In this document: in pieces, positions 1 to 60,212 of the stretch
How positions within the stretch are numbered: the stretch's first letter is position 1
Layout: every line of letters starts with the position of its first letter
Source of the DNA: Amia ocellicauda
Lineage: Eukaryota > Chordata > Actinopteri > Amiiformes > Amiidae
Direction: 5' to 3'
Assembly (NCBI RefSeq): GCF_036373705.1
Contig: NC_089856.1
Coordinates: forward strand, 26,684,798-26,748,797
Length of the DNA: 64,000 nucleotides
Translations under genes and position numbers: made by a program
Notes under the pieces: generated by a model
Told to the model about the DNA's origin: nothing
The model's input: the letters and a program-made list of their open reading frames with translations, nothing else
Databases searched by the model: none

Positions 1-278
1 ATCTAAGTGCAGTGAATGTTTAACTCAAATTGTGTTTAAGGTGGATGAGCAGATGCATGAGGTTGACAAAACTGCAACTCCATCGATTGAGTTTATTGTA
101 GGATTTAAACTAATTTGGAGTAAATTGGACAGATATGGAAACAAGTTATGATTGAATGAAAGAAATGTTTTAAAATTATCCAAAGATTGTGAACTACTGG
201 ACAATCATGAAGCATCTAGGACTGTGGGAATGAGTGAAATGGTATTGTATTATATTGAATTGCACTGCTGTGTTTCAG

Positions 279-3200
279 GACTATCGTCTGGGCTTGTTCC
301 GATGTACATTGGAGAGATCGCGCCCACAGCATATCGAGGAGCCTTTGGGACCTTACACCAGCTGGCTATTGTCACCGGAATATTGCTGAGCCAGGTAAGT
401 GCTTTTGTGATTGATATCATTAACTTCATCTTTCAAAAGAGCACTGTATGCCAAAATGACATAATTGTTTTCATGGTTTTGTTTTGCTACCGACTGGTAA
501 TTGTAGTGTGGTATATGTTTTTGTGTTTGCTCTTCCAAGCATTTAAGGTGATGAGACATTACTCAAGTTAAATGCGTCCGGAGTGTCATAATGACTGCTG
601 AGTTTTATGAATGCCTTTAGATTACTTAAAGACAGGAAAATGTATGCTATTTTATTAAATGAATGAAATGTAGTTGTTACTAAGCGGTGCAGGAAGGGAA
701 GGGTAAAGTAACCTTACTTAGTTTACTTTCCCATGCCTAAATGTTAGATTTCAATTTTGGGTGGGCTATGCCACTTACGTCATTGTTTATTTATATTGTT
801 ACACATACTTTAAACCTAAAGTTTAGGAGAAAGACAACCCCCAATCTAGGATCACTCTTCCTCGAAACACAACCAATCAGATACACACTTAATTGGAAAT
901 ACCATGTTACAAGTTTCCTCTCCTCTGTGTCAGTAGCTTTCTTGACATAGCACCACAACCACTCTCCCTCTTGCATACAACATTAAGAGCAACATTCCTC
1001 TGCCTCCCCAGTCTAACCCTTTGCAGCAGCTCCTTGGCTCCATCCAGCATGTGGGGAGGTTCTGATAGCTACTATTCAAAATCACTATCTTCCATCTACT
1101 TCTATAGGGGGTTGTCCAAACTACTGACAACCCCCTATATTTCATACTTCACTAGATATGCTTTTACACTGTATAAAAACAGTTTACTCTAGTTATTGAT
1201 AACTGTAGGGATGTCTCATGTGGCCAAGCTGACTGTCAGTCTTTTGTGTACAGGTCATTGGTCTAGAATTCCTGCTGGGAAATGATACAATGTGGCCACT
1301 ATTACTGGGCTTGTCAGGAGCACCAGCTGTTCTCCAGAGTTTTCTGCTGCCCCTTTGCCCAGAGAGCCCCCGCTATCTCTACATCAATCTGGGCAAGAAA
1401 GAGGAGACTCAAAATTGTGAGCAAGCTTTTCATGTTCTTGTGTGTTGAGGTGATTAGGCACACATAGTCACAAACATAAAACAAAATAGCATTTTGAATT
1501 GTGCCTCTGTCATTCCATGTCATATTGGCACTATCATACTATCTCCTAAAATAAGTGGCTTTCCACTCATTGAGCACAAGAAGTCTGACAAATGTAAAAT
1601 TGCTTTCACCAATATTCAGTTTGGAACTTTGTGAAGTTTTTATTTATTCCAGGCTGGAGTGAAAAACAACTGTTACATACATGATACCTAATTGAAACAC
1701 AGCTTCTCGTTGAGTTTCTGCAGTTGAAAGCTGTATTGATAGATTCAACATAGTTTTGACCTGAATCTTCCAATTTAACCCAATTCACCTGTGCTCCTTT
1801 AATTGGAATTATGAAAAGGATTTTGCGTAAGCACTCTGCTCCTGTGATTTTCCTCCTTTTAATCTGTGGGACAGGAAGATGGAAATACAAAATTAACCTG
1901 TCCCATCATTGAGCCCCCCTGAGGTTTTGGATCTTCAGCTATTTTATTGTTTTGTTTTAATATATTTACTTAGGTCTGAAGCGGTTAAGAGGAAAATGTG
2001 ACATTGAAAAAGATATGGCTGAGATGAAAAAGGAAAAGCAAGATTCTATAAAGGAGGACAAGATATCCATCCTGAAGCTCCTTCGCTCTACTGATTATCG
2101 ACAACCCCTCTTTGTGGCTCTCATGATGCATCTCTCTCAGCAGTTCTCTGGCATCAATGCAGTGAGTGAAGAGCTGGTGAAACCAGGAAACTCAGCTTTT
2201 ACTCTGTTGTTTTGTTTGGTTTCAGCACATTCACAGTGTATGCCTTTCATTTATACTTCATATTTGGACATGCATCATTTATTTTTGTTCCCATCCTAGA
2301 TTTTTTACTACTCCACTAGTATTTTTGAAACCGCTGGCTTCACCCAACCCGTTTATGCTACAATCGGAGTAGGGGTCATCAACACCATTTTCACCATGCT
2401 TTCAGTAAGTAATCTTCACACATTTTCATTAGGTCATTTATTTTTTAAAGGTTGTACCCTTGTAAATGTTTCTGTTGGATACCATGGTAAAACCACAGGG
2501 AAGTGTGAGAAGTAAAGTGAAATTACATTAAACATTAAACTATATTAGCGTAAAGTAAATGCATTGCAAAATTACTATACATTTTGTATTTACTATAATT
2601 TCCTATTACAAATGTATTGTGCTAAAAATATGCATAACTAACTGTATTTTGGTTTTGTAGAATGGCCCTTTCATTTTACACACCTTATACACTTTTAGGA
2701 GCTATGACTGTCCTATAAGTAATGTGCCAGAGCTCCCATTGCCTGATTAAAGCCTTTTCATCATATTAATTGGTATGATAATCCATATCCTCATGAGACA
2801 CAGCACAGTAAAAGCCTGAATCCCCCTGCACTGCGGACATGAAGCTTCTACTGCATTCTCTTTTTTTAAACCGGTGGAATAGTGCCAGGTCTTATCATGA
2901 AAGCCAGGAAAAATGTAACTGCCAAGTCAAGGACAAAGTGCATAAACAGCAAAGGCTAATGAACTGCTGTGAACCCAGCAAGAAGCCAGATAGAGGATTT
3001 GTGGGATACACTGAAATTCACTACCAGTCAGGATTAGTTATTCAAAATATAAATCGTGTCATTAATAATTAAACCAGGAAATAATAATAATAAATCCCAA
3101 AAAATCCACCTTAAAATGTGTTGTATCATAAACCCATAAGTCACAAACAATTTTATCAGCTTTATCTTTTCAGGAATGTGTATAACTCATTCAAATAAAT

Positions 3201-5965
3201 ACTGCATCCTTTGAAAGGATTTTTGTTTTAATTGTATTGTCTTAGATTTATTGCGATTGTATCCTGTATTCTGATTGCAAAGGTAATGACTGGCATTAAT
3301 ACTTCACATCATCAATTCTGGCAGCTCACATGCTTTTATGATTTTTTTTTTAAGGTGGTGCTGGTCGACAAAGCTGGTAGACGCACCCTATGTTTGATAG
3401 GATTAGCAGGAATGTGCGTCTGTGCAATAATCATGACTGTTGGACTGGTGTACTTGGTAGGTCATATTGCTTTATTCATTCTGCTCCTCCCTGTCATTAA
3501 CAGTCGGTTTCAAAGATGAGTTATTCAAAGTATTTTTATTGGTATTCTTACCAAACCCCCCCCAAAAGAATATGAAAAATAGCCCCTTGCTGTGTAAAAG
3601 TAAACTTTGAATATATGGGTGAAAAATTAAAGGAAAAACCTGAATAAATGAGTGGAGGAACATAACGAATGCAGATGCCTTCAAACAGGTTTACTGCATG
3701 ATAGATACAATTAAACACTTAACATCCTATCATGCTCTGTGGCATGTATAAAAATGCTGAACAGGCCCAGTTGACCTCAGTTTTGGATCAAGATGGCAAG
3801 AGGAAAGGATCTAAGTGACTTTGAATGAGGAGTCATTATTGGGGCACGAATGGCAGGAGCTTCAGTCACAAAGACTGCTCAAACTGGTCAGTGTTTCAAT
3901 AGGAACAGTGACTAAAGTTACATCTGCTTTTAGATCTATGGGAAAGACATCAGTAAATAGGGTTGGAAATTGTGGTCGAAAGCGCACATTTGATGACTGT
4001 GATGCTCGTGCATTATTACGATATGTCAGGAAAAACAGAATAGCAGCTTTTTCCCAGGTGACTGAGAATGCAAGGCAGTCTGTTGAGAACTACACAGAGA
4101 GGGATATTATAGTAGGGTTGCAGTAAACCCCTCATTACAAAGACAAATGCACATTTGAGAGTTCAGTGGTGCAAAAACCATAGGCACTGTTCTACAGAAA
4201 TGTGGAAAAAATCAGATGAGTCATCCTTCACCATATTCTTGACAAGTGGGCGAGTAAATGTGTGGCGACCCAAGAGAGCGGTACAGGCCTGACTGCTTGA
4301 CCCCTATAGTGAGGGGGGGTCCGGAGGCTCTGTTATGCTGTGGGGGGCATTTTCCTGGCATGGTTTGGATCAACTTGTCCCTTTAGAGTGAAGGGTCACT
4401 GCAAATCATTACAAAGTTATTCTGAGTGATCACCTTTATCTATGGTGAAACATTTCTATCCTGATGGGAGTGGTCTCTTTCAGGATGACAATGCCCCATC
4501 CACAGAGCACGAGGGGTCACTGAATGGTTTGATGAGTTTGAAAATTATGTGAATCATATGCTATGGCCTTCATAGTCACCAGATCTCAACCCAATTGAAC
4601 ATCTATGGGAGGTTTTGGACCGACGTGTTAGACAGCGCTCTCCACCACCATCATCAAAACACCAAATGAGGGAATATCTTTTGGATGAATCGTGATCCAT
4701 CCCTCCAATAGAGTTCCAGAGACTTGTAGAATCTGTGCCAAGACCATTGAAGCTGTTCTGGTGGCTTGTGGAGGCCCAACACCTTACTGAGACACTTTGT
4801 CACCTGTCTGTATGCATGTATGTATGTATATATAAATCTTAAAATGTGCATTGCTTTTCCAATAATCTGCTTTAATTTACAATGTCTCCATAGGACCAGT
4901 TTGCTTGGATGAGCTATGTCAGCATGGCAGGCATCTTCTTGTTTGTATGTTTCTTTGAGATTGGCCCTGGCCCTATCCCATGGTTCTTTGTGGCAGAGCT
5001 CTTCAGCCAGGGCCCTCGACCATCTGCCATTGCTTTAGCTGGCTGCTGCAACTGGACCAGCAACTTCCTCATTGGGATGTGTTTTCCATATATACAGGTG
5101 AGGAAACATTTCGGCAGGTAGCATACTGGTTTGCAAATGATGTAACAAAATGATACTGAAGGACCAAAAGACAGCACATTTCAATGGGAAGATTAAGGTA
5201 ATGCATGGTCCAGACAAAAAAAAAAATGTAAATCCCAATTCACCCATCAATTGCAAATTCACAATCCAGTACTTGATGGTGGATTTCCATTGGATAGTTG
5301 CAAGAAGCTATTTGGCAAATGGAAAGCTTGAAGTGACTCATTCATAAATTCCTAGTCAATCCAGCCCCTAATATACATTTATTTGTTTATAGTTAGGTAG
5401 TTGAACCAGACGATTTATATTTTAAGAACTGTTTAATTCAATTTACCAACATCTGTGTCTTAGCTATGCTATACAAATTGAAACTGTATTGGCAATAATT
5501 ATTAATCCACATATGTTTGAATATGAATTGACATTCTCTAGTATATGAAATGTTGAATCCAAAACTATGTACTTTTCTTCAAGTACAAAATGTATTTGCC
5601 ATGTGTTTGGTAATTAATTGGTAAAGATCCATTATCACTGGTTCTAATGCTGAGTTGACATGAGAGGTTCAATGCAACTGAACACCACGATAAAAGAAAA
5701 TAATAGGATTTGGGGGGTAAATCTGGCCCTACTGTCTCTCAGCTGCCTCTTTATTTCCCAGGGTTTTTGTGGAAGTTACGTCTTCATCATCTTCGCTGTC
5801 CTGCTGTTCTTCTTCACCATGTTTGCCTACTTCCGAGTGCCTGAAACAAAGGGAAAGACTTTTGAGGAAATCTCAGCAGAATTCTATCGCCGACGTCATG
5901 GCACACTCCCCAGCCCTAAAGCTGCAACTGAGATGTTATATCTGGGGACATCGACAGATGCCTGA
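279..5965 (+). CDS. slc2a2: Solute carrier family 2 member 2 (GLUT2 facilitative glucose transporter), 3' part of gene
   Basis: This is a 12-TM sugar uniporter of the plasma membrane (liver, beta-cell, gut and kidney type). Seven coding exons read as 279-394, 1254-1416, 1974-2161, 2300-2404, 3355-3456, 4894-5097 and 5762-5965, each with AG/GT borders. The joined frame stays open for 359 residues, and the missing N-terminal exons lie left of the window. Visible family motifs are [23 protein letters not shown] in the central loop, the TM7 motif [22 protein letters not shown] in TM10 and [11 protein letters not shown] before the C-tail. The tail [15 protein letters not shown] resembles the GLUT2 end and not that of GLUT1, 3 or 4. 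The exon 3 to 4 junction (1416/1974) splits a Cys codon. The intron 3457-4893 holds a dead Tc1 copy. Where GLUT2 usually has an HVA tripeptide before QQFSG, this copy has HLS. Neighbouring eif5a2 on the same strand supports the call. Confidence 0.95.
3790..4830 (+). mobile_element. Degenerate Tc1-like DNA transposon in an slc2a2 intron
   Basis: The segment reads as an old Tc1 transposase copy with many stops and frameshifts. It starts near ATGGCAAGAGGAAAGGATCT ([11 protein letters not shown]-like). A middle stretch (about 3870-4060) gives [20 protein letters not shown] and a GRKRTFDD-like linker. Near 4480 there is a QDDNAP-like remnant of the second catalytic Asp region, and near 4581-4630 [17 protein letters not shown], which carries the third catalytic residue. 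It lies between slc2a2 coding exons in sense orientation and must be spliced out. Terminal inverted repeats were not resolved, so the borders are approximate. Confidence 0.85.
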
Positions 5966-11440: not shown

Positions 11441-13578
11441 ATGGCAGACCCTGATATTGATTTCACCAGTGGAGATGCTGGGGCTTCCACCACCATCCCC
11501 ATGCAATGCAGTGCTCTGCGCAAGAACGGGTTTGTGGTGCTGAAAGGACGTCCATGCAAGATTGTTGAAATGTCAACTTCCAAGACTGGCAAGCACGGCC
11601 ACGCCAAGGTAATGTGATGTTTTTTTGTCATAGCTATATCATTAATCGAATCTCAATCCAAAAGGTGAATTAAACATCAGCCATGTAGTTCAATACAAAA
11701 TGTTTCCTGCACTAAATGTTTCTACCCTTTGTGTGGGCAGGTTCACATGATTGGGATTGACATTTTCACTGGTAAGAAGTATGAAGATATCTGCCCTTCC
11801 ACCCACAACATGGATGTCCCTAACATCAAGAGAAATGACTTCCAGGTGAGCTAGTCTTATAGTTTTAAGCATATTTCATGTAGGTACCCCATTAAGTCCT
11901 TGACTCTTCATTTGACATTGCCATGGCTATAAAATTGTTGTTTCCAGGGTTAGCTTTACCTTTATGCTGTCCAATGGAGTTCACTTTGCTTCCCTTGCAA
12001 TAATCAACCCTTTTAAAGTGTTCCATTTGTGCTCTACGAACTTAATTTGTAAGGTTAATGTTAAAATGCTGTATAGCCTGTAAAAAAAATCCCATAGGGC
12101 TTGTGGGTTTTCCATCCTCGGACATCTCTTTTTGTAAGGTCACACACACACTTCTCAAATTTTGTGTTGATAAATCAACCAAATCAAGGTTTACTTTTTT
12201 GGTACTACTAGAACATGATTAGTTTCATCTAAGCAGTGTGCACCAGTTAGTCAAGGTTCTTGGAGCTTGCAATTTTCTTGTGTACCTTGGACTCGTACTC
12301 TGGCTTCATGCATTTATAGTTGAACAGCTTGCATTTGTCTAGATCTTAAGTCATTTTATTACTTGATTTGATTTATTTTTTTACTGGTACATGTGCCAAA
12401 CTACCCATAGATCTAATGTCAATCAAATGCATGCTGACTGCTGAGAATACTTGTCTGTTTTGTTTTTGTCATGTATGCATTAAATCTGATGTATGGTAGT
12501 GTAGCACTGTCTCTTACACTCCAACTACATGCTCATTTATTTTTTTACCCAGCTGATTGGCATTACAGATGGTTTCCTTTCCCTGCTGATGGACAATGGG
12601 GAAGTCCGTGAGGATCTCAGACTGCCAGATGGTGATCTGGGCAAAGAAATTGAAAGCAAATATGAAGCTGGTGAAGAGATGCTGGTAAGCTGGAATTGTT
12701 GCACTTCTGAGTTGACCTGTCCTCATGGTTGAATTCTTGTGCATTTTGTACTATTGTGTGTGTACTGTTAAGGTTCCATCAGTTTAACATGCTTCTTAAA
12801 GTGAATGATTTTAATTCCTCAAATCCTTCCCCACAACCTCCACTCAAACCTATGTGATAATTATGGAGTATGCTTTGTAGTTCTTGCCATTGAAAGCTTA
12901 GTCACTTATAAGTGATGGTTGTCTTGTACCTGGTAGTACCTATTTTAATGTCAAATTTCTTATACTAAATACATCTACTTGATTTGTAATTTGACAGGAT
13001 AAGTTTCAAATTCATAATTCTCTGCCTATGAAATATATGCTAGACAAACCATTTTGGTTATTTAAATAAATCAAACTCATAGCATTTTAACTTCCAAACC
13101 TGTAAATCCACAGGATTTTTACAAATGAAGTCTAAATGTCTTCAATTCTTACACTAAGATCTGAAATAAATCCCTACAAGTATAAAAGGGGGAAGGTGGT
13201 ACCTTTTCAACTGGATAGACAATCATTTATTGGTTGTTGCACTGAGCTCATCAGCAGATGTAATTGTAATTACATGTAGAAATGTAATTTGGGAGACCCA
13301 CTAGTAGGAATCTTGCAATTTAAAAGCAGATTGTAATATACCAGTCATTATAGTTACTCCTTGCTCAGTTTATGCTGTAATCTTGAAATGGTTTTATGCA
13401 ATTGTTAATTTAAACTGCTTGTTTTAGTATGTCTATTGCTTTTGTTCAGCTTGTAATTGATAAATAGATGATGAAAAGCATTAAACATTCATGTTTTTCT
13501 CCCCCACACCACCAGATCTCAGTGCTTTCAGCCATGGGAGAGGAGTCTGCAGTTGCCATCAAGCCCATGACCAAGTAA
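11441..13578 (+). CDS. eif5a2: Eukaryotic translation initiation factor 5A-2 (hypusine-containing eIF5A)
   Basis: eIF5A binds the ribosomal E site and promotes peptide-bond formation and termination; it acts in the cytosol and needs hypusine. Coding exons are 11441-11608, 11741-11845, 12553-12684 and 13516-13578, giving 155 residues, one more than human eIF5A. The ATG sits in a good Kozak context (CCACCATGG), 21 bases after the exon-2 acceptor. The N-terminal SH3-like domain contains [12 protein letters not shown], with the lysine to be hypusinated at residue 51. The C-terminal OB-fold begins around the second splice junction. The protein ends [12 protein letters not shown]. Position between slc2a2 and rpl22l1 supports eif5a2, although NDFQLIGI and the LSAM segment look more like eIF5A1, so the paralogue call rests mainly on synteny. 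Confidence 0.92.
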
Positions 13579-21070: not shown

Positions 21071-22603
21071 GAGTTTAGACAGAGGGTCTTAATTTAGTAC
21101 AGTGGATTAGAATCTTTAGCTTTAGCAAATGTAGCACTTCTAATTATTTATTGTGGAAAAACAATATTATATACAGTACTGTGCAAAAGTGTTATGCAGG
21201 TGTGAAAAAATGCTGTAAAGTAAGAATGCTTTCAAAAATAGACATCTTACTAGATAATATTTATCAATTAACTAAATGCAGAGTGAGTGAACAGAAGAAA
21301 AATTACATCAAATCCATATTTTGTGTGACCACCCTTTGCATTCAAAACAGCATCAATTCTTCTAGGTACACTTGCACAAAGTCAGGGATTTTGTAGGCAT
21401 ATAATCAGGTGTATGATTAAACAATTATACCAAACAGGTGCTAATGATCATCAATGCAATATGTATGTTGAAACACAATCATTAACTGAAACAGAAACAG
21501 CTGTGTAGGAGGAATAAACCTGGGTGAGGAACAGCCAAACTCAGCTAACAAGGTGAGGTTGCTGAAAACAGTTTACTGTCAAAAGTCATACACCATGGCA
21601 AGACTGAGCACAGCAACAAGACACAAGGTAGTTATACTGCATCAGCAAAGTCTCTCCCAGGCAGAAATTTCAAGGCAGACAGTGGTTTCCAGATGTGCTG
21701 TCCAAGCTCTTTTGAAGAGGCACAAAGAAACGGGCAACATTGAGGACCGTAGACGCTGTGGTTGGCCAAGGAAACTTACTGCAGCAGGTGAAAGGCACAT
21801 CACGCTTACTTCCCTTCGCAATCGGAAGATGCCCAGCAGTGCCATCAGCTCAGAATTGGCAGAAAACAGTGGGTCCCTGGTACACCCATCTACTGTCCGG
21901 AGAAGTCTGGTCAGAAGTGGCTTTCATGGAAGACTTGCAGCCAAAAAGCCATACCTCCGATGTGGAAACAAGGCCAAGTGACTCAACTATGCACGAAAAC
22001 ACAGGAACTGGGGTGCAGAAAAATGGCAGCAGGTGCTCTGGACTGATGAGTCAAATCTGATATATTTGGTTGTAGCAGAAGGCAGTTTGTTTGCCAAAGG
22101 GCTAGAGAGCGGTACATGAATGAGTGTCTGCAGGCAACAGTGGAGAACAAGGAGTCCTGGACGTGATGGTATGGCCCCCACAGAGCCCTGATCTCAATAT
22201 CAAGTCTGTCTGGGATGACATGAAGACAGAAGCAACTGAGGCTGCCTAAATCCACAGAAGAACTGTGGTTAGTTCTCCAAAATGTTTGGGCCAACCTACC
22301 TGCCGAGATCCTTCAAAAACTGTGTGCAAGTGTACCTAGAAGAATTGATGCTGTTTTGAAGGCAAAGGATGGTCACGCCAAATATTGTTTTATTTAGATT
22401 TTTCTTCTGTTCACTCACTTTGTATTTAGTTAATTGATAAATATAATCTATTAGCAGGTCTATTTTTGAAAGCATTCTGACTTGACAGCATTTTTTCACA
22501 CCTGACTAAAACTTTTTTCACAATAAATAATTAGAAGTGCTACATTTGCTAAAGCTAAAGATTCTAATCCACTGTACTAAATTAAGACCCTCTGTCTAAA
22601 CTC
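21071..22603 (+). mobile_element. Tc1-like transposon with long inverted repeats and internal deletion
   Basis: Long terminal inverted repeats match. The left end from GAGTTTAGACAGAGGGTC (21071) through the CAGTACTGTGCAAAAG area is mirrored at the right, ending at 22603. The subterminal TGTGAAAAAATGCTGTAAA segment is mirrored near 22480-22505. The transposase frame (21594-21981) encodes an HTH domain (MARLSTATRHKVVILHQQ), a GRPR-like hook region (CGWPRKLTAAGE) and a second HTH. It then stops, with WTDESNLIY (first catalytic Asp) in another frame near 22042. Most of the DDE core between that motif and the C-terminal RIDAVLKAKD-like end is missing. It is non-autonomous. Confidence 0.88.
21594..21981 (+). 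pseudogene. Truncated Tc1 transposase (N-terminal DNA-binding part)
   Basis: About 129 residues from MARLSTATRHK survive before a stop. They form the paired-like bipartite DNA-binding region: two helix-turn-helix units (LSQAEISRQTVVSRCAVQAL and the later HPSTVRRSLVRSGF) around a basic linker. The catalytic core is broken: the first Asp motif lies out of frame after the stop, and the second Asp and the Glu regions are deleted or scrambled. It may at most bind its own repeats. Confidence 0.8.
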
Positions 22604-24312: not shown

Positions 24313-26023
<1,711 letters not shown>

Positions 26024-26910: not shown

Positions 26911-27866
26911 TAAGACCAAAAGATGGGTGTTAGTAAAAAGAAATATGGCATGTCAGTAAAAAAAATACAAATTAGTCTGTCATGTCAGTAAAATCACAAA
27001 TGTATGGTTGGCAACCCTGACACTATATATAATTCACAGTATTGTGGAACATAATCAAACTAAAATGAATCACTGAATTTGTTTCTAATTCAGGTTTTGA
27101 ATCCTGCAAGTCAGGCACTAAGTTTATCCATGATAAATCGAAATAATAGGAAAAACAAACCCTTAGATTAGTGAAGGGGATTAACGGTATTTAGGCGTCC
27201 TAATACTTTATCGCAATACTATTGTCATTATGATCAAAGAGTCAATTTCAATAAGCATGTTATTCATTAATTCCCATTCAAAAAAAAAGAAAAAGAAAGC
27301 AACCCTCGATATGTTGTGCTTTTTCAAATTAAATATCACGATGTTTTTGTAAATGTAGCAATACACAACCGTATTTGCTTAGAATCTGAAATATTCCATG
27401 AGCAGCTGTTACATTCTACATTCTGGTGAAAACATTTATTCTCAAGTAGTTTTGATTGATTAAAAGATCATTTGCACACACTAATTAAATACCGACAAAC
27501 ACATTTAAACATTTATGTACAATTAATTACAGCCTGTCGCCGCTGCTAAACGTCTCGGCCGCATTTTTATGTGTAAATGCATCCAGTTATTTTGTCATTA
27601 ATGATTCGTCTGGAGTGAAAGCAGGGGATCCAAAACCGAATCAAAGGAAATCTAACTCTAAAGGTGCGAGTGACATTGCTTTTGTAGAGCGATTGGTGCC
27701 AATAAACGAAGCTTATTTTTTGTCATGATAAATTGTATTTAATAGAAAACTTTGTACTTTTTGAGCATGAAAACCAAAATGTTATCCAGTACGTAAATAT
27801 ATAAGATTGCAATCAATTGTAATTTAATTCATATTTCACAAAATTTCGGATTAATATTACATATTA

Positions 27867-27920
<54 letters not shown>

Positions 27921-28385
27921 CATGTAAAAGGCCAGCTATATATCGACGCAAGTGGAAACACTTTGTCAGGCTTTCATGTAGCAGTGTGATATGTAGGCTA
28001 TATATAAATACATGTTATGTTGAACATCAAAATAATAAGGCTTTACAGCTGTAGCTGAGTTGAAGATAAGTTAAAACAAAAATAGAAAAAAAAATACATT
28101 AAGGTTTAGCTAGTGTATGTTTGTTTTACCTTACAAATAAAAACATTAATTTATTGGTAGGTATTTATAATATTCCACCATTCATTCCTTAAACCTATGG
28201 TGTTATCTTAATCCAATCAAGTATCATGTATTCCTGAGATATCATCAAAGTTGTATATTTTGTGGAACAATTGTGTGAAACCTCATTAGCCATTTAGAGC
28301 ACAGAATGGGATTGACGTAACCCGTCAGTGCCGGGCCTGGGGAGATAGAACCAGGGGAGGAGATTAGCCTCACTGTCTCCTGTTT
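26911..28385. other. Intergenic DNA between rpl22l1 and the DACT-like gene
   Basis: Mostly AT-rich with an (AT)n microsatellite at 27872-27916. A short patch at about 27530-27660 is richer in CpG (GTCGCCGCTGCTAAACGTCTCGG) and is followed by a homeodomain-type TCATTAATGATT. It could be a conserved element, but nothing proves it. No gene was seen. Confidence 0.4.
27872..27916. repeat. (AT)n microsatellite
   Basis: About 45 bases of uninterrupted AT dinucleotides. Confidence 0.97.
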
Positions 28386-30026
28386 TTGAGTGCTGAGACT
28401 TGCAGTACTGGGCCTCCATATAAATGGGGTAAAATGCTCACTTTTTGTGTGAGGAATGACGCAGAGATGGACAGAGCTCGCATCAGGGAACGCTTCCAAG
28501 CCACTCTGGCCGGGCTAATGGAGCTGGATTTGCTGAAAACAAAACACCAAGAGATAATCGAGGCAGCTCTGGAGTTCGGTGTCAAAGGGCAGAGTCAATA
28601 CATGGAGAAGGACTCCTCTGGGAAGCAGTCAGAAGTTAGGACGTCTTTCATTAGCTCAGACCAGTTCTATCAGTATGGTCTGCTGGACAGGGGTTCCTCT
28701 TTGATGCTTACACGAAGCTTTTCACAGGACACATTAAGTGGGTCAGAGGGTGACAGACTGCAGCCGATCCGTTCAAGTATCTCCTCACAAAACCTGCTGC
28801 AAAGGACACCGTCTGACCCAAGCTGGAGGGGAAACCTGGAGTCGGGAGCCAGTGCTGGTTTCTATGACAACAGTACCTCTCTGTCAACTTCCTGTGACTC
28901 CATTTATAGTGTGACTTCATATGGCTCAGAGGATTGGGAAGAAAACAAAGCTGGCAGGATGGACCACAACATGCAGCAACAGTCTCTTCAGCACAGGAGC
29001 AGAGGTAGAGAGAATCCCTTAGATCCCCAGAGGCCTTTGTCACGAGGGGATATTACCCCCATCAGTGGATTCTTGTCCATTGCTGACCTCTGCCCCCAGT
29101 CTCACTGGCAGGCCGTCTCCTCCATATTGCAGCCTCAGATGGTCTTAGATCGGAAGTATCGACTGGATCTGATCTCATTCAAAACAAGTGATGTCTACCA
29201 ATATCCCAGTCCTCTCCATGCTGTGGCCTTGCAGAGCTCTCTGTACACCCCGGCACTGAGAAGCCAACCTCCAGTGCAGGGCTCTTCAGCAGAACAATCT
29301 AGGGAAGAGACCACTGAGAACAATACTTCAGCTGAGGCCAATTCTGAATTAGAAGTGGAGCCTGTTTCTGAATTACAGCTGAACACTGTAGCTCATTTCA
29401 GGCCCAGCCTAGAACTCTGCTCTCTGCATGCAGATGCTTCAGCCTCCAGATGCTTTGGCCAGAAGTTGATTTCTTTCTCAAATAGGTGCCGTTTGGAGAA
29501 GTTCATCTCTGAAGTGGCCCTGAGACACAGTCACCTTTCTGCAGCGGCCCATCTGATTGCAGATGTTGAGAAGAGGTTGTTGGAGTCTAATGTTACAGCA
29601 GGTAGGAAGATGCCCAGAACCATTTCCACCTCTAAAGTGGCCACATCTCTGTCAGTGTGCAGTGGCAATGGTTTTCCAATTAGCTGGGGAGACAGGGCCT
29701 CTGTGGTTACAAGTTCTACATACAACATGTGTGGGATTCACGCTCTCCATGTGGAAAACAGAAGACACTCAGCTTTAGACCACAATCAAAGTTTGAGTAT
29801 AATTCCTTGTGCTCCCAACAGTCAAGTCAATTCTAAAGAGCATCCCAGGCCTGATGGTCTCTGGAATTCTGCCTCTGAAATCTTCCTCAGTTCTGTGGAA
29901 CATTGTAGACCTGAACATGTCTTTCATAGGAAATCTCGACACATTTTGGATACCCACAGTTCCAGGAGAGATTTGAAGCAAAAGTGGTTGTCTGTTTCAG
30001 ATATTTCCTCTTTCAACCACAGATAA
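28386..30026 (+). CDS. Dapper/DACT-family protein (dact4-like), intronless, atypical
   Basis: One open frame of 546 codons. DACT proteins are cytoplasmic scaffolds that bind Dishevelled and tune Wnt and TGF-beta signalling. DACT signatures are clear. The N-terminal block IRERFQATLAGLMELDLL (about residues 33-50) matches the family start, so translation may really begin at Met17 (28434) or Met28 (28467). ASAGFYDNSTSLSTSCDSIY (about 154-173) matches the SSGFYELSDG...SNSCTSVYS block. DVYQYPSPLHAVALQS (about 270) is a family hallmark. The end, KQKWLSVSDISS, resembles the RRWQSTxDIS block. The leucine-zipper region normally coded by middle exons is absent, and no intron interrupts the frame. The frame closes before any PDZ-binding MTTV end. 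A second frame (to 30364) continues at once and could be the rest after a frameshift. It may be a retrocopy or a rebuilt gene; which DACT paralogue is unsure. Confidence 0.8.
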   Translation: MSAETCSTGPPYKWGKMLTFCVRNDAEMDRARIRERFQATLAGLMELDLLKTKHQEIIEAALEFGVKGQSQYMEKDSSGKQSEVRTSFISSDQFYQYGLLDRGSSLMLTRSFSQDTLSGSEGDRLQPIRSSISSQNLLQRTPSDPSWRGNLESGASAGFYDNSTSLSTSCDSIYSVTSYGSEDWEENKAGRMDHNMQQQSLQHRSRGRENPLDPQRPLSRGDITPISGFLSIADLCPQSHWQAVSSILQPQMVLDRKYRLDLISFKTSDVYQYPSPLHAVALQSSLYTPALRSQPPVQGSSAEQSREETTENNTSAEANSELEVEPVSELQLNTVAHFRPSLELCSLHADASASRCFGQKLISFSNRCRLEKFISEVALRHSHLSAAAHLIADVEKRLLESNVTAGRKMPRTISTSKVATSLSVCSGNGFPISWGDRASVVTSSTYNMCGIHALHVENRRHSALDHNQSLSIIPCAPNSQVNSKEHPRPDGLWNSASEIFLSSVEHCRPEHVFHRKSRHILDTHSSRRDLKQKWLSVSDISSFNHR

Positions 30027-30364
30027 GCACAGATAAGTCAGGACAACATGGAAGCAATCAACACCCTCAGAAGGCACAAGGCAAAACAAAGTGTGCCTCA
30101 ATCCAGTGTGGTTGCGCTTTCACTTCAGACATCATGCCGTCTGCACTGAATCAAAGACATCTGGAGGCTGACAACCTCTATGGCAGAAGGGAAGAATATG
30201 AGAGAAGCATCTTTGGAAGTGCACACTGGGATAGCTCTCACCCATACAAACATCTGGGAATGGAGGAACCAGAGTCAATGGAACAGAGGTCTTCCTTCCC
30301 CAGAGAGCTGAAGAGGAGGTTTCAGAACCCCAAGAGTTTTTGTAATCAGAAAATCAAAAAGTGA
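30027..30364 (+). pseudogene. Possible frameshifted C-terminal continuation of the DACT-like gene
   Basis: The preceding frame stops at 30026, and a +2-shifted frame is open from about 29984 to 30364. It gives a hydrophilic segment (including DNLYGRREEYERSIFGS and a basic end, PRELKRRFQNPKSF). No DACT motif is certain in it, and the usual C-terminal MTTV is not found in any frame. It may be a decayed C-terminus or only 3' UTR. Confidence 0.3.
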
Positions 30365-30743
30365 ATTGGACAGACTAATCGGAAAGAAAATGTCAGTTAA
30401 CCTAAAGAGTTATGATCGTGTCAAACTAAGTTCATAGTGCAACATCATAGTGATGAACTTGGTATTTCAATATATGCTTTTTGAAATATTTTGGTGACAT
30501 GAAATGTATATCTAAATTTCTATTACATATGTTTAATGTTAATATAATGTAGTATTTCATATTTAATGTAATAATATGTAATATTTAATTAAAAAAATAC
30601 ATTTTTTCCCTTTAAAGTATCAGCAATACAGGATTATGGTGGCATGTATTTTCATTCTCTAGTTCATTCTCAGTTCTCTAATTATGTTTCTGTCCAATGT
30701 TTTCTTGTGTGGATTGTTTGTATTTGTATTGCTTCTATTATCA

Positions 30744-30771
30744 TTAATAAAGCCTTAAAAAAAAAAAAAAT
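30744..30771 (+). terminator. AATAAA followed by an A-tract, likely 3' end of the DACT-like unit
   Basis: AATAAA is followed five bases later by about 14 consecutive A residues. This could be a normal poly(A) signal near genomic A's, or the remnant poly(A) tail of a retroposed transcript. The second would fit the intronless state of the upstream frame. No clear target-site duplication was found. Confidence 0.4.
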
Positions 30772-31428
30772 CAAGACTATAAAGTTTTTACCTTTGTATA
30801 AGTTTAAAGTTATACCTTCATACAAGTTTTTAAAAGCTTCATAGTTAAAAACTTTAACTAGCCAGAAGAAAAGTTATATAAAAATAACCCTGTGTTGCTA
30901 TGACTACCGTCCCCTCTGAAACCTATTGTGATTGCTTTAAAAATGTTTTATGCCCTTTCATCAGTTTTATAATCCTTTTAACATAGCATTTGATACACTC
31001 AATTCAAACTTAAACAGCTGACATCATAATCAGTAGTTAACTAGTTACCATCCCACCTTAATTAATAAGATATGGCTATTTTTTAAAGGATAATGTTATG
31101 AATTCAAATTTTGATGGCTCTGCAAATTTATCTGAACAGCAATTTGAAACAGCTACTGTTAGAAATGATTAATTGAAACAAGCAACAAGCATAGCATTAC
31201 TTTTGCAGGTTCTGATTTTACGACAATTCTGCCTCTTTAAACATAACTCTGGCTACAATCCTCTAATTTAAAAATAATTATCTAAGAAAACAATGTACCT
31301 GTGTCTCAAAACGGGAGTGTTATATTTGTTCAGTATACTTGCTGGAAGGAATGATCTTTCCATTTTGACCTGATAGTGAAACTCACAGATGTAACTTCTG
31401 CACTTAGCTTAGATGTAGACTGTATTTT

Positions 31429-32200
31429 CTAAGCAAGAACAGTACACAGCAAAAAGTTGTCTCCCCAGCTGTGTTCACAGTGGTCCTCTGTATCAGAGCC
31501 ATAAACAGAAACCAGAATACTCTTAATGGCGGTGTATAGTTGACTGTGCTGTGTCATCAGTGCCACTGCATGCAGAGGGCTGGGGTAGTGGAAGACTTCT
31601 TTGGTTCCTGTGAAATTAGAACTGATTGGTACTGTGCTCTCGGGCCCACCTGAGATGTCAGGACCCAGAAGACTGTGGGGAAAATATCCCTGTGAGCAGG
31701 AGATCCTGGAATGAACTTCTCCTGTAGAAAACTGATTCTTGGTGACTCCATCAGGGTAGTTAATTGCAGTACATCCTCCATTCCCCTGCAAGAGGGGGTG
31801 TTGCTGCATTTGGCCTGCCTTCTCCATGTTCCAGTGTATTATTCCACACTCTCAGAAAATAGAGCAGTCCAAGTGAGAACGATAGCCATTAGGGAGGTAA
31901 AGCCAACCAAATCCACCAGATTATGCCACTGCTGCTGTGAGGCCATCAGGCAGCTCTGTCTAGGGCCTACCAGAGTCACTCAGAGGACTGTCAGCGTGGC
32001 TGTGGCTCAGCTTCAATGTGGACCCCAAGTGGCCGGAGTATGGTGCCTCCCTAGAGTTTTTGGCTGGACTATTTTGATGCTGCTTGTCTCTTCTTCCCAG
32101 AGCAGCTTCCACACTCTCCAGCTGTATGGATTTCAGCAGCTCTAACTTTATTATTCCTGCCAGGACAGCATGGAAGTGGACATCAAGCAGCAAATTATTT
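31429..32200 (-). pseudogene. Second DACT-like copy, broken, facing the first
   Basis: On the minus strand, LLLDVHFHAVLAGIIKLELL (from about 32190) matches the DACT N-terminal block. It is followed by ESVEAAL, as in EIIEAAL of the plus-strand copy. SDSGRP then meets a stop, and LPDG follows in the same frame, resembling the decayed SSGFYELSDG block; another stop lies farther on. After a gap, EVFHYPSPLHAVALMTQHSQ near 31560-31590 is the DACT hallmark, followed by LYTAIKS (LYTPALRS in the plus copy). There is no ATG for the first block, as a TAG precedes it in frame, and no C-terminal region. It is intronless like its partner, so the two probably derive from one intronless ancestor by inverted duplication. 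Confidence 0.7.
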
Positions 32201-35200
32201 TCCTCCTATAAAGGACAACAAAGTCTTTCTGTTCTCCCTCTGTTTTTATCTACCTAATCCCAGACAGGCAGGCTCTCTTTTTCTGGGTCTGTTAATTGTT
32301 TTTCCATTTTCCTGGTTCCTTAATAATTAAGACATTAAGAAATAATTAAATATCTTGGAAGGTATTGAAGAATGGCTAATTTATCGAATAGGACCTATTT
32401 TATAAATTAGAAGGAAGTTCATTTCATCTCACTGATCCTTTGAAGGATAGTCATTTCACAGAGACTGGTTTGTCTCCTTTTCTCTGATGGTAAGGAAACT
32501 CCCTCTATTCTTATTGGAAGAGGAGGTTTGTGGTCTGTAAAATAAGCCCTTTACTGTTTAATCAGTACCGATGAAAAGGTAGATGTGTTGTCAAGGATTA
32601 AAGTAAAACTCTGTGTAGTCCATTATAGTAGTTCATTATTATATTTTGATGTCTATTATAGTAACTGAATGGGCTTTGAATGAATGAATTATGTACACAC
32701 TGTAAACTAAATGACTCCTGTACTTGTTTTACATCAGTTCTGTCCCATGTTTCTTTTTTATTAATGTGAAATTATTACAGCTAATTCACAATTGTACTAA
32801 ATAATGTGGGCATAAAACCAACATACTAGCAATTAAAATTAGCTGCATAAAAATAACCAAAAGGTTCAGTTCAGGGGGGGTTATTTTAAGAAAGGAAAGT
32901 CTCAAAATATTATTAAATGCAAATGGTGTTCCCACATTTGATAATATGAACCCAAATGATTTTTCATCCGATTGCATTGTATTTCCTGACGAGCCACAGA
33001 AGACAAATTAATTACGTCAATTAATAACTGATACCTGTCGCAACTTCATTGTATAATGTTGATTGCATCAAGATAGAATTACATCAGTGAGGTGGCAGGA
33101 ACAAAAGAAAACTGATAAACGAACAAGCCTTGTTAAAACAGAATAATACCTACAGACAACCATTCAAGCATTTTAAACTTATTTTGGATGCTTAATTTGC
33201 ATTGTTGTTGTTTTTTTTCCTCTACATAATTATATAATTACAGTAGTAGAGTATGGATGTCGGGTGTACCACCAGATGTCAGTGTAGACTTAAAATTGAC
33301 CAGGTATCAGAAATCAGTTTAGTTCTACTATTGTGTGCCAAGAAAAAATAATAGTAATTACAGAGAAGCGGTCAGCTGCATTAACAGTCGCAGCACATTT
33401 GATAAGTCGTTAAGTCATTATTTCACATTAAATTATTTAACTATGTATGCACTGTTGTTTAAAAAAAAAAAAAAAAAAACATTAAAATTGTGTAATACCG
33501 TGATCTCGTCTTATTGATTTATTTAGTGTCATGTTTTTAGGTGTATGCGCATGCTTGTTGCCTTGGCTTTGCTAATTAGTAGACCAACACGTGTTTGGTC
33601 AGTTGAACATTTTGTTAAAGTCAAGCACGATAAGTTTCCCATATCATTTTGTTACATGTGCTTTATTAACACTAGTATAAGTCTTATGTTTACAAAGGAA
33701 CCAACAATTTGTATGTAGTTTGGTAATTAATTATTTGTATTTAAACTTAAATACAGCTGAAGTTGTGGAACATGCTTCAGCAAATGAAACTTGAAATGTT
33801 TAATTCTTATTATAATTTCACATAAAATCTAACAACAATAGTGCATTTTCAAGGTAAATCTCAATATGCTATGGTTATAAACATATTATTGCTCATTTCC
33901 AAAATACATCGTATGCATTAAGTTGACAGTTGTCCTTGAATTTTCATTATTTTACAACCGTCCAATAGGCCTATGCAATTTTAAAGTTTTCTTAAGTTAA
34001 GCAGCAGGTGTTAATAATGTAAATGTTTGTGTAATGACTTCTTGTAAGTGTTGACTCATTGCTACCACAGCTGAGATTCAAAGATTATTTAGTTGTTTTG
34101 TATTTAAAAAAATTAAGTGAATCTGCATGTACTGACTCTACAGAAAGAAACAACTGCGAATAAGCTAAACACAAAAGCATTTGTTGTTGTTGATTTCAAT
34201 GTCACTGTGTAGTGAGGGGGAAAAAAACTGAAACTTGCTGACATTAATAAGATCTTGATTAGGAGTTGCAAATGCACGGATAGGCAAAAAGACAGGTTGC
34301 ACTGGGAAGAGATTTTACAATGTGTCATTGAGTTGAAGATACAGACTTCACAGATAAGTAATTTTGAATTGTCAAGACTGAATTGGGAGTTTTAGTGAAC
34401 CATATCTTATATTTGTTTTTTTAAGTTTTGCACAATGTTACAAAAATATACTAATAATAACAAGCCTTCTGTTATTAATAATAGATTGTACAAAATGTCA
34501 TGCTATTCAGGGGTTGTTTTTGTGAAGGACACCATATTTGGAAGTATTATTTTCATCGTAAGGGCCCATACAACACATTTGTAAACCATATTGTAACATT
34601 TCTGAAGCTGCCCAGTATCCTAAACCCAAATCCACACATTCACATTTTGATGAAGTGAAGGGTGAATCTGGAAGAGAATCCTTATGGGGGAGGGGAAACA
34701 GTATTCCTTTGGCCATCTATCAGAATGACAGCATTGGCCGTTAAGAAGGGTGGATCTACAGCCTGTTAAATACTTTTGAACAGCTGTCTATTTTTCTGTT
34801 TTCTCATCTGGTTTTGAAATATAGCCTTTATTTGCTCTGCATTCTACCTATCAGCAACTGTGAGTTTTTCTCTCTAGATAACTGCAGGAGAACGCCGAAG
34901 AAAACAAAACCATGCTTGGTGAGCTCCAAAATGTCAAGAATCTGTGTGTAATGTGGGATAATTTATCAGAGCACATCCTCTTAAAGTTTCAGATTTTTCC
35001 ATTTTCCATTATAAACTTAAAGCTAGACCTCACTGATTCCTACTGAGCTTCAGCTTTTGTCTTTTTCAGAATGCAAGGGCCACAGCTTAAATATAATCTT
35101 GATATCAGTCATAATAATGTGTGGCAGAATACAAAGGAACTGCTGTGAATATTACTGTAGAAAAGTATTGTACTAATATAGTGTTCCCCCCCTACTTTGT

Positions 35201-43200: not shown

Positions 43201-44507
43201 TTTAGACCAAATCAAACCTATCCATTTGATTTATAAGCAGTACTGAGTGATTTATGTCTAGGTCAAAGTTTTGATTTGGTCTAGCAGTTGGTACTCTTAG
43301 CTTGCATTTTGCGCTTGTGTCATTGTTTATTACAGATGTGTTTTGGCATAAACAGAGTACAATAAATACATTTACAAAAGCAACCTGTTTGTCTTGGTAA
43401 GTGTGGGATGTTTTTAGTCTCTCTCACTCTCTCTCTGTCACACTCTCACTCGTATGATTTTTCTTGGCCATCCCTGTCCCCACCAAGATGTGATCAACAT
43501 TTAAAGCCTGGCCTCTCAAGTCAACTTTTTTTCTGCTTGTGCTTGTTTATATTGAACTTAACTCACTTTTGTCTATGTTCCCACATCGCAGGGGCTTTGC
43601 ACATTAGATTGGATATAAACCCATAGGTTGTGTATGCAATCGTGGTTATCTGAGAAAGGAAGCAAGCACTGCCCAAGGGGTTGGGGAGGGGTTTTCAGAG
43701 CGTCGCTGGAACGTACTGAAGACATTTGTCTATCAAAGCTGCCATTGGCTCTTTGGCCCGTCATTCAAACGGGACCCTTCCACCTGTTTGTATTAAAGGT
43801 GACATCTGCACAAAGACTTCCTCTTTTTGCCGGGAGCTAGTACTCCCGCGTGACCTTGCAACCCTTAGGCAGTGCTTCTTTTTTCAGATAACCATGGTTG
43901 CATACACAACCTATCGTTATCTTTCAAGTTAGAAGCACTGCCCACGGGGGATGGGTTACAGTATAACCAAACCGTCGCAAGGGAGGAGGCAGCGAGCTGG
44001 TAAGAGAGCTTGCCCCGAGGCGTACCTACTAGGAGCCGTACCAACTCTATGATAGAAACAACATGCCCTCGCTAACAGGAGCAGTCATCCACGTTCAACT
44101 TATATACACTGCGGGGTGCAGGAGCCAGCTCATGCCCCACACGCAGGACGCAGGAGCAAGCTACACACGGCCGACCAGCAGCTAGCGGCAATAGACGCTC
44201 TACATTCAATAAATGACCTATATACACAGTGGGGCACAAGAGTAAACTCAAAACCTCCCGCTGAATACAGCAGCAGCGGCCCTCAGCACAGCTACTATAG
44301 CTAGGGCGGGGCCACAGGCCTGCTGACAAATGAACTATGTACAAATGGCAGGGTACAGGTGTAAAAACACATGCACTCCCGCCTACAGAATGAGCTATAT
44401 ACAAGTCATAGTCCGGTAGGAAGGGAAAACGGTTCTGCGTTGCTTTCCCAAGCATGCTCAACAGGGGCAGACAGCGATAGAAAAGCCAGGAGCCAGTGCC
44501 CGATAGG

Positions 44508-45480
44508 CTACTGAGGCTCAACTGAAGCCAACACTGGATTCCAAAAAGAAGGAACCGGGCACATCACTTCCAGCCTGTAGAATCGAACAAAGGTGTGCGG
44601 CAAGACCCAACTCGCAGCCGCACAGATGCCTGCCAGTGGGGCGCCTTGAAAAAGAGCCCATGACGTGACCACACCTTGGGTCGAGTAGGCCATCAGGTGT
44701 TCGGGCACCGGGACTCCAGCCGACTCGTAAGCCGTGGTAATGGTGTCCACAATCCAGTGCAAGAGGCACTGCTTTGGCCCCGTGTCCATGCTCCATAGGA
44801 CACAAACAATTTGTCTGAGCACTGAATGTCCTTGGTGTGCTCCAAATAGCACCTGAGAGCCCGCACCGGGCACAACAGGTGTAGCCTGCTCTGCTCTTCC
44901 GAAGAGAAGAGAGGGGGATGGAAAGCCATCAACTCAATAGGCCTGTTGTTATAGAAAGGAGACAGCACTTCAGGAGGAACGCAGGATTAGGCTGAAGTGT
45001 AACCCTGGACCCATCTCCCGCAAAACGGACACACGCAGGGTGAACGGACAGGGCGTGTAACTCACTCACGCATTTTCCTGACGTGATTGCCAACAAAAAC
45101 GCCATCTTCAGTGACACTAATCTGAGGTCAACTGACTGCAAGGGCTCAAACAGTGCTACACGGACAGAGAAGGCCTCAGCCTGCACGCACCTTTCAGAAA
45201 CTGTGCCGCCAAAAAATGAGCCCAGAGGCTTGCCATCAATCCTGACATGACATGAGGAGAAGTCGGCCAAATAAACCTTGAGCGTGGACGGGGACATGCC
45301 CTGGTCCAACAGCTTCTGCAGGAATTGCAGAATGACACCTATATGGCTATTAACTGGGTCATGAGACTTCTCCTGACACGAAGTTTGAAAAGTCTGCCAG
45401 TGGTAGGAGTACTGTGACATCGTAGAGGGAGCTCCCCCCACCTGTATAGTAGCCACTACCGTGTCTGACCGACCCCAAGC
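44508..45480 (-). pseudogene. DIRS tyrosine recombinase, inactivated
   Basis: Tyrosine recombinases integrate the circular DIRS DNA. The N-terminal SAM-like part (SQYSYHWQTF, HIGVILQFLQKLLDQGMSPS) runs in frame to LAITSGKCVSELHALSV. Family members have Arg where Cys stands in GKCVSEL. After a frameshift come AFHPPLFSSEEQSRLHLLCP and VRALRCYLEHT, then AYSTQGVVTSWAL, where the catalytic H-x-x-R motif reads Y-x-x-Q. Next comes TFVRFY with the nucleophilic Tyr kept. Three of the catalytic residues are therefore lost in addition to frameshifts. Confidence 0.85.
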
Positions 45481-45482
45481 CA

Positions 45483-47174
45483 TCAGGCGATAACGCTCAG
45501 GGGCCAGGCCCAGAGCTGGAGCAGGACCGGGCTGCGATGCCACAGTGTGCCCTGCACCTGAGGCAGCAAGTCCGCCCACAGGGGAAGCTGCCAAGGCTCT
45601 CCGACCAAGAGGGAAACCAGGTCCGGAAACCACAGTCTGCGGGGCCAGCGAGGTGCTACCAGCAGAACTGTCACTTGTTCCTGCCTGATCGTCTCCAGAA
45701 CCACTGGGAAAAGAGGGAACAGTAGGAATGCGTAGAGGAGACAGCGCGGCCATGTGCTGTCTAGCGCATTGATCCCCGGGGTCCCTGACTGATCCCGAAC
45801 GGAGAACCATAGGGGACAATGTATGGACTCCGCCAAAGCGAAGAGGTCCACCTCTGCCCTGCCGTAACGGCTCCAAAGCTGCTGAATTACCAGCGTGTGG
45901 AGGTGCCATTCTGACACTGGGGGGCCTCCCCGAGAGAGGAGGTCTGCCGCCGTGTTGGAGCTGCCCGGGAGGTGGGCTGCTCTGATGGAGCGCAGCTGAG
46001 TCTGCATTCATAGAAGCAGATGACGCACTAGCCGATATAGTGTGTGCGACCGGAGACCTCCCTGCCTGTTGATGTAGGCAACCACTGCTATGTTGTCTGT
46101 CCGCACTAAAACATGACTCCCCTGAAGGGCCAGCATGAAGTGACGGAGACCAAGGAGCACAGCTTGTAATTCCAGGGCGTTGAATTGGGGGGCCCTGATG
46201 GGCACCGTCCAACTGCCCCGGACTCCCTGTCAATTTGCAGACAGCTCCCCAACTCTGCTTGGTAGCATCTGTTGTCAAAACCGCTCGGTGGCAGATTGGC
46301 CCCAAGGGCACACCGAGGGTTAAATTTGAAGGGCTCCGCCACCAATAGAGCACCTTCCAGCATGCTTGAGTGACTGCCACTCGACGTGCTCTGTCGCGGC
46401 AAGGATGCATCCCATGGGACCCGAACCACCACTGCAGAGGCCTTAGATGAACGAGGCTGAGGGAGAGGGTTTTGGACGCAGCCACTAGAAGGCCCAGCAG
46501 CCTCTGGCAAAGGGACACCCTGACACGGGCTCTCAACCGGAAAAGGGAGAGACACACGTTTATGAAGGCAGCTCTCTCTGGCTATGTAATCAAGGCCAAC
46601 TGTGCCTGCTGAGTTGGCACAAGAGAGTTCTTCTATCTGTTGACCCGAAGGAAGGCCCAACTCGGAGAGGCGGTCGAGGATCAGGCTTGTGTGGCTCTGA
46701 AACTGCTCCCTGGAGTTCGAACAGACCAGCCAGTTGTCTAGATAATTGAGGGGGCCAACATTGCATCCATGCACTTGTAGAAAGTGTGAGGAGCTAGAGA
46801 CAAGCCGAATGGGAGAACAGTGAACTCGAACGCTTGGCCTTCGAAGGCGAAGTGGAGAAACTTCCTGTGCGCCTGCACAATGAAAGTAGGCATCTTTCAA
46901 ATCCACCAAGGTGAACCAGTCTCCAGGCTTTGATAGCCTAAAACATGACGCTTAGAGTGAGCATCTTGAAACGTAACACCTTGAGGCAGCAATTCAGGTA
47001 CCTCAGATCCAAGATGGGGCAGAAACTGCCTTCTTTCTTGGGCACAAGGAAGTAAGGGGAATAGAATCCCTCATGCTGCCCCAGAGGGGGCACTTTGCGG
47101 ATCATGCATTTCTCCACAAAGTGATTTCGACACAAAGAGCCACACACTGCAACGGGTCCCTCACTCATGTCCAC
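45483..47174 (-). pseudogene. DIRS reverse transcriptase-RNase H, frameshifted
   Basis: Fragments in successive frames line up with DIRS RT. They include VPPLGQHEGFYSPYFLVPKK and FCPILDLRYLN (47.1-46.95 kb), DLKDAYFHC (about 46.9 kb), and FLQVHGCNVGPLNYLDNWLV near 46.74 kb. The last carries the YxDD box as YLDN, so the second catalytic Asp is replaced. RNase H follows with LTTDATKQSWGAV (about 46.27 kb), FNALELQAVLLGL and VLVRTDNIAVVAYINRQGGL (about 46.1 kb), then LPGSSNTAADLLSRG and VDLFALAESIHCPLW. At least three frame changes separate these blocks. Confidence 0.88.
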
Positions 47175-60210: not shown

Positions 60211-60212
60211 TA

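What the first reader, a model, noticed from the sequence alone, without database searches (positions are those of the whole stretch)
28386..32200. Convergent pair of intronless DACT-like genes next to rpl22l1
Both copies carry the DACT N-terminal LAG...LELL block and the YPSPLHAVAL hallmark within one uninterrupted exon-like stretch, and they face each other about 1 kb apart. Known DACT genes have several exons with a leucine-zipper region. A neighbouring intronless pair, one open and one broken, suggests a lineage-specific or forgotten DACT branch (perhaps dact4) or a retrocopy that was inverted and duplicated.
Basis: partly seen in the sequence, partly recalled or inferred. Interest (0 to 1): 0.7.

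Follow-up and report, generated by a model that had tools for sequence, protein, structure and literature searches.

The report
Intronless dact4r gene plus broken copy
A fish chromosome carries an intronless signalling-adaptor gene that most likely is the already described retrogene dact4r, and facing it lies an old, broken relative that apparently has not been described; the gene is known and the relic is a modest addition.

Summary
The plus-strand frame (A, ATG 28434 or 28467, stop 30026) is a Dapper/DACT protein (PF15268, 77.6 bits, cut-off 27), with its N-terminal block and YPSPLHAVAL in one open frame. The minus-strand piece (B, 32205-31432) keeps both blocks in the same order and frame, but has three in-frame stops and no in-frame ATG before the first block. 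Read through with X at the stops, B passes the Dapper cut-off (30.5 bits). Upstream lie slc2a2-, eif5a2- and rpl22l1-like exons. No 'forgotten' branch is needed: Schubert et al. 2014 (PMC4236578) described zipper-less Dact4 and the intronless retrogene dact4r of gar and zebrafish. A fits dact4r on the points testable here: no heptad zipper, no PDZ-type end. New is B. In the 42 aligned core codons A and B differ mostly at third positions (24 of 38), so the pair is probably old and B was lost later. A may be worn too: coding-like DNA runs about 300 bases past its stop in another frame. No fish sequence could be reached (genome search did not complete), so orthology and tree are untested.

The parts
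28434..30026 (+). Copy A: intronless Dact4-type ORF, 530 codons from ATG 28434 (or 519 from ATG 28467), probable dact4r
   Evidence: stop-free 552 codons; Dapper PF15268 77.6 bits (cut-off 27), E 1.4e-21; length; ATG contexts
28494..28571 (+). A, N-terminal Dact block FQATLAGLMELDLLKTKHQEIIEAAL
   Evidence: the first 89 aa scanned alone match Dapper profile positions 1-46; E 2.9e-6, 26.9 bits, 0.1 bit under the cut-off
29202..29231 (+). A, YPSPLHAVAL block
   Evidence: 29184-30023 scanned alone matches Dapper profile positions 252-310 with E 2.4e-9
30018..30037 (+). Exact tandem 10-mer CACAGATAAG x2 at A's stop codon
30027..30437 (+). Possible former C-terminal coding tail of A, now out of frame: GC-rich to about 30330, one frame open 29930-30364, another open to a TAG at 30435-30437
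   Evidence: no Dapper hit in 29930-30361, so its identity is inferred
31432..32205 (-). Copy B: broken Dact relic facing A; frame with stops at 31962-31960, 31923-31921 and 31854-31852, and no in-frame ATG before the N-terminal block
32098..32175 (-). B, N-terminal block FHAVLAGIIKLELLKSIQLESVEAAL
31558..31587 (-). B, YPSPLHAVAL block, amino acids identical to A with 6 synonymous differences
24900..26015 (+). rpl22l1-like exons (neighbour, approximate limits)
   Evidence: Motifs at 24989, 25447, 25877-25964; Pfam Ribosomal_L22e 3.3e-21 for 25868-26008
11441..11846 (+). eif5a2-like exons (neighbour, first two coding exons only)
   Evidence: Pfam IF5A-like_N 1.7e-24 (11441-11608) and 4.9e-10 (11741-11842); motifs; sequence
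152..5962 (+). slc2a2-like sugar transporter exons (neighbour, approximate limits)
   Evidence: Pfam Sugar_tr 3.1e-9 for 5654-5962; the earlier exons were not scanned with Pfam

Best explanation
Copy A is the ray-finned-fish retrogene dact4r. It is a reverse-transcribed Dact4 mRNA that landed downstream of rpl22l1 long ago and was kept as an intronless coding gene. Its product is a Dact4-type adaptor that keeps the N-terminal block and the YPSPLHAVAL block (which I take to be motif 4b, in the Tcf3-binding region) but lacks the leucine zipper and the C-terminal PDZ ligand. It would therefore work as a non-dimerising partner trap that counteracts other Dacts in Wnt/TGF-beta signalling. That function is proposed for Dact4 by Schubert et al. 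and is not shown here. Copy B is an old inverted duplicate of the retrogene that stayed coding for a long time and then decayed: no start codon, three stops, and nothing recognisable beyond about 45 codons after YPSPLHAVAL. SHOWN: the two Dact frames, their order, strands and breaks, and the neighbouring gene families. INFERRED: dact4r orthology, duplication as B's source, the order of events and the function.
For: Dapper profile hits for A and for read-through B. The N-terminal block (exon 1 in ordinary Dacts, partly recalled) and YPSPLHAVAL (motif 4b is coded in exon 4 of Dact1 and Dact2; four exons) lie in one open frame in A. No heptad leucine run of four, and no PDZ-type end in A's frame, as reported for Dact4. 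An intronless dact4r away from the dact4 locus is in print for gar and zebrafish. A and B share two blocks in one frame and one order. In the 42 aligned core codons, 24 of 38 differences are third-position, pS 0.61 against pN 0.20; in YPSPLHAVAL 6 synonymous and 0 non-synonymous. B keeps the 5' part and lacks the 3' part, the reverse of the usual 5'-truncated retrocopy (recalled), which favours DNA duplication.
Against: No vertebrate Dact sequence was compared, so A could be another Dact4 retrocopy. The published dact4r neighbours are not named in section 14 or in the 12 dact4r passages, and eif5a, eif5a2, rpl22 and slc2a2 have 0 hits in the main text, so the locus could not be matched. The middle of B does not align with A better than shuffled B (483 of 1000 shuffles reach the score). 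Codons flanking the cores are far less conserved (pN 0.42 in the 51-codon block and in the 10 codons after YPSPLHAVAL). The aligned blocks were found by protein similarity, which by itself favours synonymous differences. No duplicated flank was found between A and B.
Confidence: 0.7

Rival explanations
1. A is a separate, lineage-specific Dact4 retrocopy at this site, not the ortholog of gar/zebrafish dact4r.
For: Orthology was not tested; the published flanking genes are unknown to me. A run of 14 A (30757-30770) follows an AATAAA at 30746, as a retrocopy tail might.
Against: No convincing flanking direct repeats, and other A runs occur nearby (one at about 33460). Published dact4r is likewise intronless and away from the dact4 locus.
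Confidence: 0.13
2. B is an independent second retrocopy, or the relic of a different Dact gene, that happens to lie beside A.
For: Very low DNA similarity (54 of 80 bases) and an unalignable middle.
Against: The two copies lie 1.4 kb apart, and B is missing its 3' end rather than its 5' end. Independent landing so close is unlikely (inference).
Confidence: 0.2
3. B is not dead: it is a short live gene whose stops lie in an intron, with its start in an upstream exon.
For: 29 in-frame GT-AG introns of 60-300 nt would remove all three stops, e.g. 31970-31722 with a TTTTCTACAG acceptor. A pyrimidine-rich stretch ending TTTATAG lies just before the frame opens at 32205. YPSPLHAVAL is fully kept.
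Against: Many candidate introns are expected by chance; no shuffled control was run. The best donor reaches 6 of 9 of a recalled consensus. A's GFYDNSTSLSTSCDSIYS stretch (from recall a conserved Dact block) is not recognisable in B; a look-alike seen by eye (SGGF..DCSIF) is not supported by the alignment test. A first block in an internal exon would differ from the described gene structure.
Confidence: 0.05
4. A is itself a decaying pseudogene, with a broken C-terminal frame as the first step.
For: The GC-rich, coding-like block runs to about 30330 while A's frame stops at 30026; the remaining stretch is open in another frame to 30364. An exact 10-base tandem repeat sits at the stop.
Against: A 530-codon open frame with a strong Dapper match. 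The tail frame has no Dapper hit, and the C-terminus of Dact4 is poorly conserved anyway. An assembly error at the repeat is possible.
Confidence: 0.2

Closest known systems
dact4r of spotted gar and zebrafish (Schubert et al. 2014, PMC4236578)
   Same: Intronless Dact4-type gene; zipper and PDZ ligand missing, as reported for the Dact4 group
   Different: Here a facing, broken second copy is present; locus identity and sequence orthology were not testable
dact4 (four-exon parental gene)
   Same: Dapper family; no leucine zipper; no C-terminal PDZ ligand
   Different: Dact4 has introns and lies with ttc9, bscl2 and others (section 14 of PMC4236578)
DACT1-3 / Dapper / Frodo
   Same: N-terminal block and YPSPLHAVAL block; Pfam PF15268
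   Different: Dact1 and Dact2 have a leucine zipper and a PDZ ligand (in Dact3 the zipper is reduced; and recall); A and B show neither

Membership tests
Dact/Dapper (Pfam PF15268) | Score above the curated cut-off | tested here: met
   A 77.6 bits, B read-through 30.5 bits, cut-off 27. B's single pieces fall below it: 19.7 and 14.5 bits
Dact4 group | No leucine zipper | tested here: met
   No L-x6 heptad of four in A or B; two overlapping relaxed LIVM runs in A at aa 354 and 361, far from the N-terminus
Dact4 group | No C-terminal PDZ ligand (MTTV) | tested here: inconclusive
   A ends SFNHR, which is no PDZ ligand. Its C-end may be broken, though, and 11 PDZ-like ends were found in the other frames of the scanned flanks, which I take as chance
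Dact4 group | Dact4-specific motifs 6 and 10; place in the tree | not testable with these tools
   Motif sequences are in additional files (no look-ups allowed); no vertebrate Dact sequences reachable
dact4r | Intronless | tested here: met
   Both blocks lie in one open frame of 552 codons
dact4r | Same locus as gar and zebrafish dact4r, unrelated to the dact4 locus | not testable with these tools
   Section 14 and the 12 dact4r passages name no dact4r neighbours; 0 hits for eif5a, rpl22, slc2a2 and slc7a14 in the main text. Neighbours here are slc2a2-, eif5a2- and rpl22l1-like. I did not search the window for ttc9, bscl2 and the like
Recent processed pseudogene | Target-site repeats and poly-A tail | tested here: inconclusive
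   No convincing flanking direct repeats; 14-A run at 30757 after AATAAA at 30746

The most novel reading that the evidence does not exclude
The dact4r locus of early ray-finned fish held two facing, functional, intronless Dact4-type genes for a long time. One was lost late in this lineage, and an intact second gene may survive in sister species.
Probability: 0.4. Interest if true: 0.45.

Novelty: new member of a known kind. Interest (0 to 1): 0.25.

Why it matters
Few papers turned up on Dact4 and dact4r (4, one treating them in depth by occurrences), adaptors proposed to act as 'anti-Dacts' in Wnt/TGF-beta signalling. A second copy at the retrogene's site, coding for a long time and then lost, would show that the retrogene itself was duplicated, and would give a place to look for a further Dact in other fish. 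For the gene itself the result is that its kind is already described.

Tried and rejected
A 'forgotten Dact branch' was rejected as unnecessary: dact4 and dact4r are in print. A zipper 'coded elsewhere' was rejected: Dact4 has none. A recent inverted duplication was rejected: the best DNA match is 54 of 80 bases, and among the 25 of 30 inverted pairs shown for 27000-33500 none linking the A and B sides is longer than 26 nt. Motif 3 in B (SGGF..DCSIF) was seen by eye only; the middle of B is no better than shuffles. Scans of viral contigs and genome contigs with A gave 4 and 24 pattern matches, none confirmed by tblastn; these collections are of viruses, bacteria and archaea. No PDB match up to E 10. 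No tRNA by ARAGORN and no Rfam family at gathering score in the window. A bacterial-type promoter scan of 28001-28500 found nothing and does not bear on a fish gene.

Paper searches: dact4+dact3 gave 2 papers. 'dact4' as a word start (covers dact4r) gave 4, in which the term occurs 83, 1, 1 and 1 times (listing only, except PMC4236578). retrogene+zebrafish+spotted gar+dact gave 0. dact1+dact2+bowfin gave 0. rpl22l1/eif5a2/slc2a2/gar, at least three of four terms, gave 19, of which 10 were listed, none on this locus by title. That the broken second copy is not in print rests on these searches only; the paper's additional files were not open to me.

Full report
OBSERVATION. The window is a vertebrate, evidently fish, locus (inference from its genes and transposons). 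The species was not given and could not be established with the tools at hand. Stop-to-stop listing gives one large open stretch near the finding, 28368-30026 (+), 552 codons; the longest such run in 300 Markov simulations of 3 kb was 221 codons. From ATG 28434 (530 codons; a second ATG at 28467) it matches Pfam Dapper PF15268 with 77.6 bits, E 1.4e-21, in two stretches, the best being aa 139-308 on profile 109-310, which includes YPSPLHAVAL. Scanned alone, its first 89 aa match profile 1-46 with 26.9 bits, 0.1 bit under the cut-off. On the minus strand, 32205-31963 and 31851-31432 each hit Dapper weakly (14.5 and 19.7 bits, cut-off 27). Read through with X at the stops, the 258-codon frame reaches 30.5 bits, E 2.4e-7.

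ANATOMY OF THE PAIR. tblastn of A against the whole window finds B as its two best non-self matches. They are in the right order on the minus strand: N-terminal block 51 columns, 35% identical, E 0.009; YPSPLHAVAL block 50 columns, 44% identical, E 0.001. B has three in-frame stops, at 31962-31960, 31923-31921 and 31854-31852, and no ATG between the upstream stop (32208-32206) and the N-terminal block. GC content marks two coding-like islands in AT-rich DNA: about 28321-30330 for A and about 31441-32280 for B. By the alignment B ends near the counterpart of A's position 29325, so it lacks the counterpart of about A's last kilobase. A's island runs about 300 bases past its stop at 30026. That tail is open in another frame up to 30364, and a third piece runs to a TAG at 30435-30437, but 29930-30361 does not match Dapper. 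An exact tandem 10-mer sits at A's stop (30018-30037). So 'one open, one broken' is right for most of the length, with a possible C-terminal break in A.

AGE AND SELECTION. At DNA level A and B share 54 of 80 bases in the best match. Over the 42 ungapped core codons there are 38 differences, 24 of them at third positions (0 of 100000 random placements reach this); pS 0.61, pN 0.20. In YPSPLHAVAL there are 6 synonymous and 0 non-synonymous changes. Outside the cores conservation falls off: pN is 0.42 in the 51-codon N-terminal block and 0.42 in the ten codons after YPSPLHAVAL. The blocks were picked by protein similarity, which biases the count. Even so, silent sites near saturation beside unchanged residues suggest that both copies were coding for much of their separate history. 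The stretch between the blocks does not align: 483 of 1000 shuffles of B do as well. The global A-B score stands 9.8 sd above 300 shuffles of B, evidently driven by the two blocks.

LOCUS. Exons of an slc2a2-type transporter (Sugar_tr 3.1e-9 for the last exon), an eif5a2-type gene (IF5A-like_N 1.7e-24 and 4.9e-10) and an rpl22l1-type gene (Ribosomal_L22e 3.3e-21) lie upstream on the plus strand in that order (motifs).

WHAT IS KNOWN. Schubert et al. 2014 (PMC4236578; I read the abstract, sections 10, 14, 16 and 20, and passages returned by three searches of the text, not the whole paper) describe four gnathostome Dact groups. Dact4 has lost the leucine zipper and the PDZ ligand. An intronless dact4r occurs in gar and zebrafish, sits away from the dact4 locus, has similar surroundings in both species, and is placed before the holost-teleost split. 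Motif 4b is coded by exon 4 and lies in the Tcf3-binding region. That YPSPLHAVAL is motif 4b is my reading: the text has 0 hits for YPSP. Zebrafish dact4r is expressed in brain, otic vesicle and pectoral fin bud. Copy A meets what could be tested: Dapper family, intronless, no zipper; its end carries no PDZ ligand, but that end may be broken. The parts of the paper I saw name no dact4r neighbours, its additional files could not be opened, and no vertebrate sequences were reachable (genome search did not complete), so orthology is inference.

MECHANISM. The best reading is an old Dact4 retrogene that still codes for a non-dimerising adaptor without the Dvl-binding end, keeping the block in the Tcf3-interacting region. 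Such a protein could hold Dact partners and weaken other Dacts, as the paper proposes for Dact4; nothing here tests it. B is best read as an inverted duplicate of the retrogene: it keeps the 5' half and lacks the 3' half, the opposite of ordinary 5'-truncated retrocopies (recalled), and it lies 1.4 kb away in convergent orientation. No duplicated flanks were found (25 of 30 inverted pairs shown). An independent second retrocopy, or a spliced live B (29 in-frame introns possible, no shuffled control), cannot be excluded.

VERDICT. Its 'forgotten branch' reading is superseded by published dact4/dact4r, and the retrocopy reading is likely right. The facing broken copy is the only part not found in print by my searches.

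Noticed in passing
50020-51105 (+): Open 362-codon Tc1-like transposase with Sleeping Beauty-type HTH, Tc3-type HTH and DDE_3 domains, all above Pfam cut-offs.
   Followed up: partly
61478-62344 (+), 60399-61016 (-), 21490-21978 (+): Further Tc1-like transposase pieces with the Tc3-type HTH domain; the first also has DDE_3.
   Followed up: partly
44000-48500 (-): GC-rich block (0.55-0.58 in 44001-48000) with overlapping minus-strand frames and a weak reverse-transcriptase hit under the cut-off (RVT_1 0.0068). From recall it resembles a DIRS-type retroelement; none of the frames scanned gave a recombinase hit.
   Followed up: partly
30018-30037: Exact tandem CACAGATAAG repeat right at the stop codon of copy A, with coding-like DNA continuing in another frame.
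   Followed up: partly
27873-27916, 60211-60274, 61114-61167, 63039-63112: Long (AT)n arrays.
   Followed up: no
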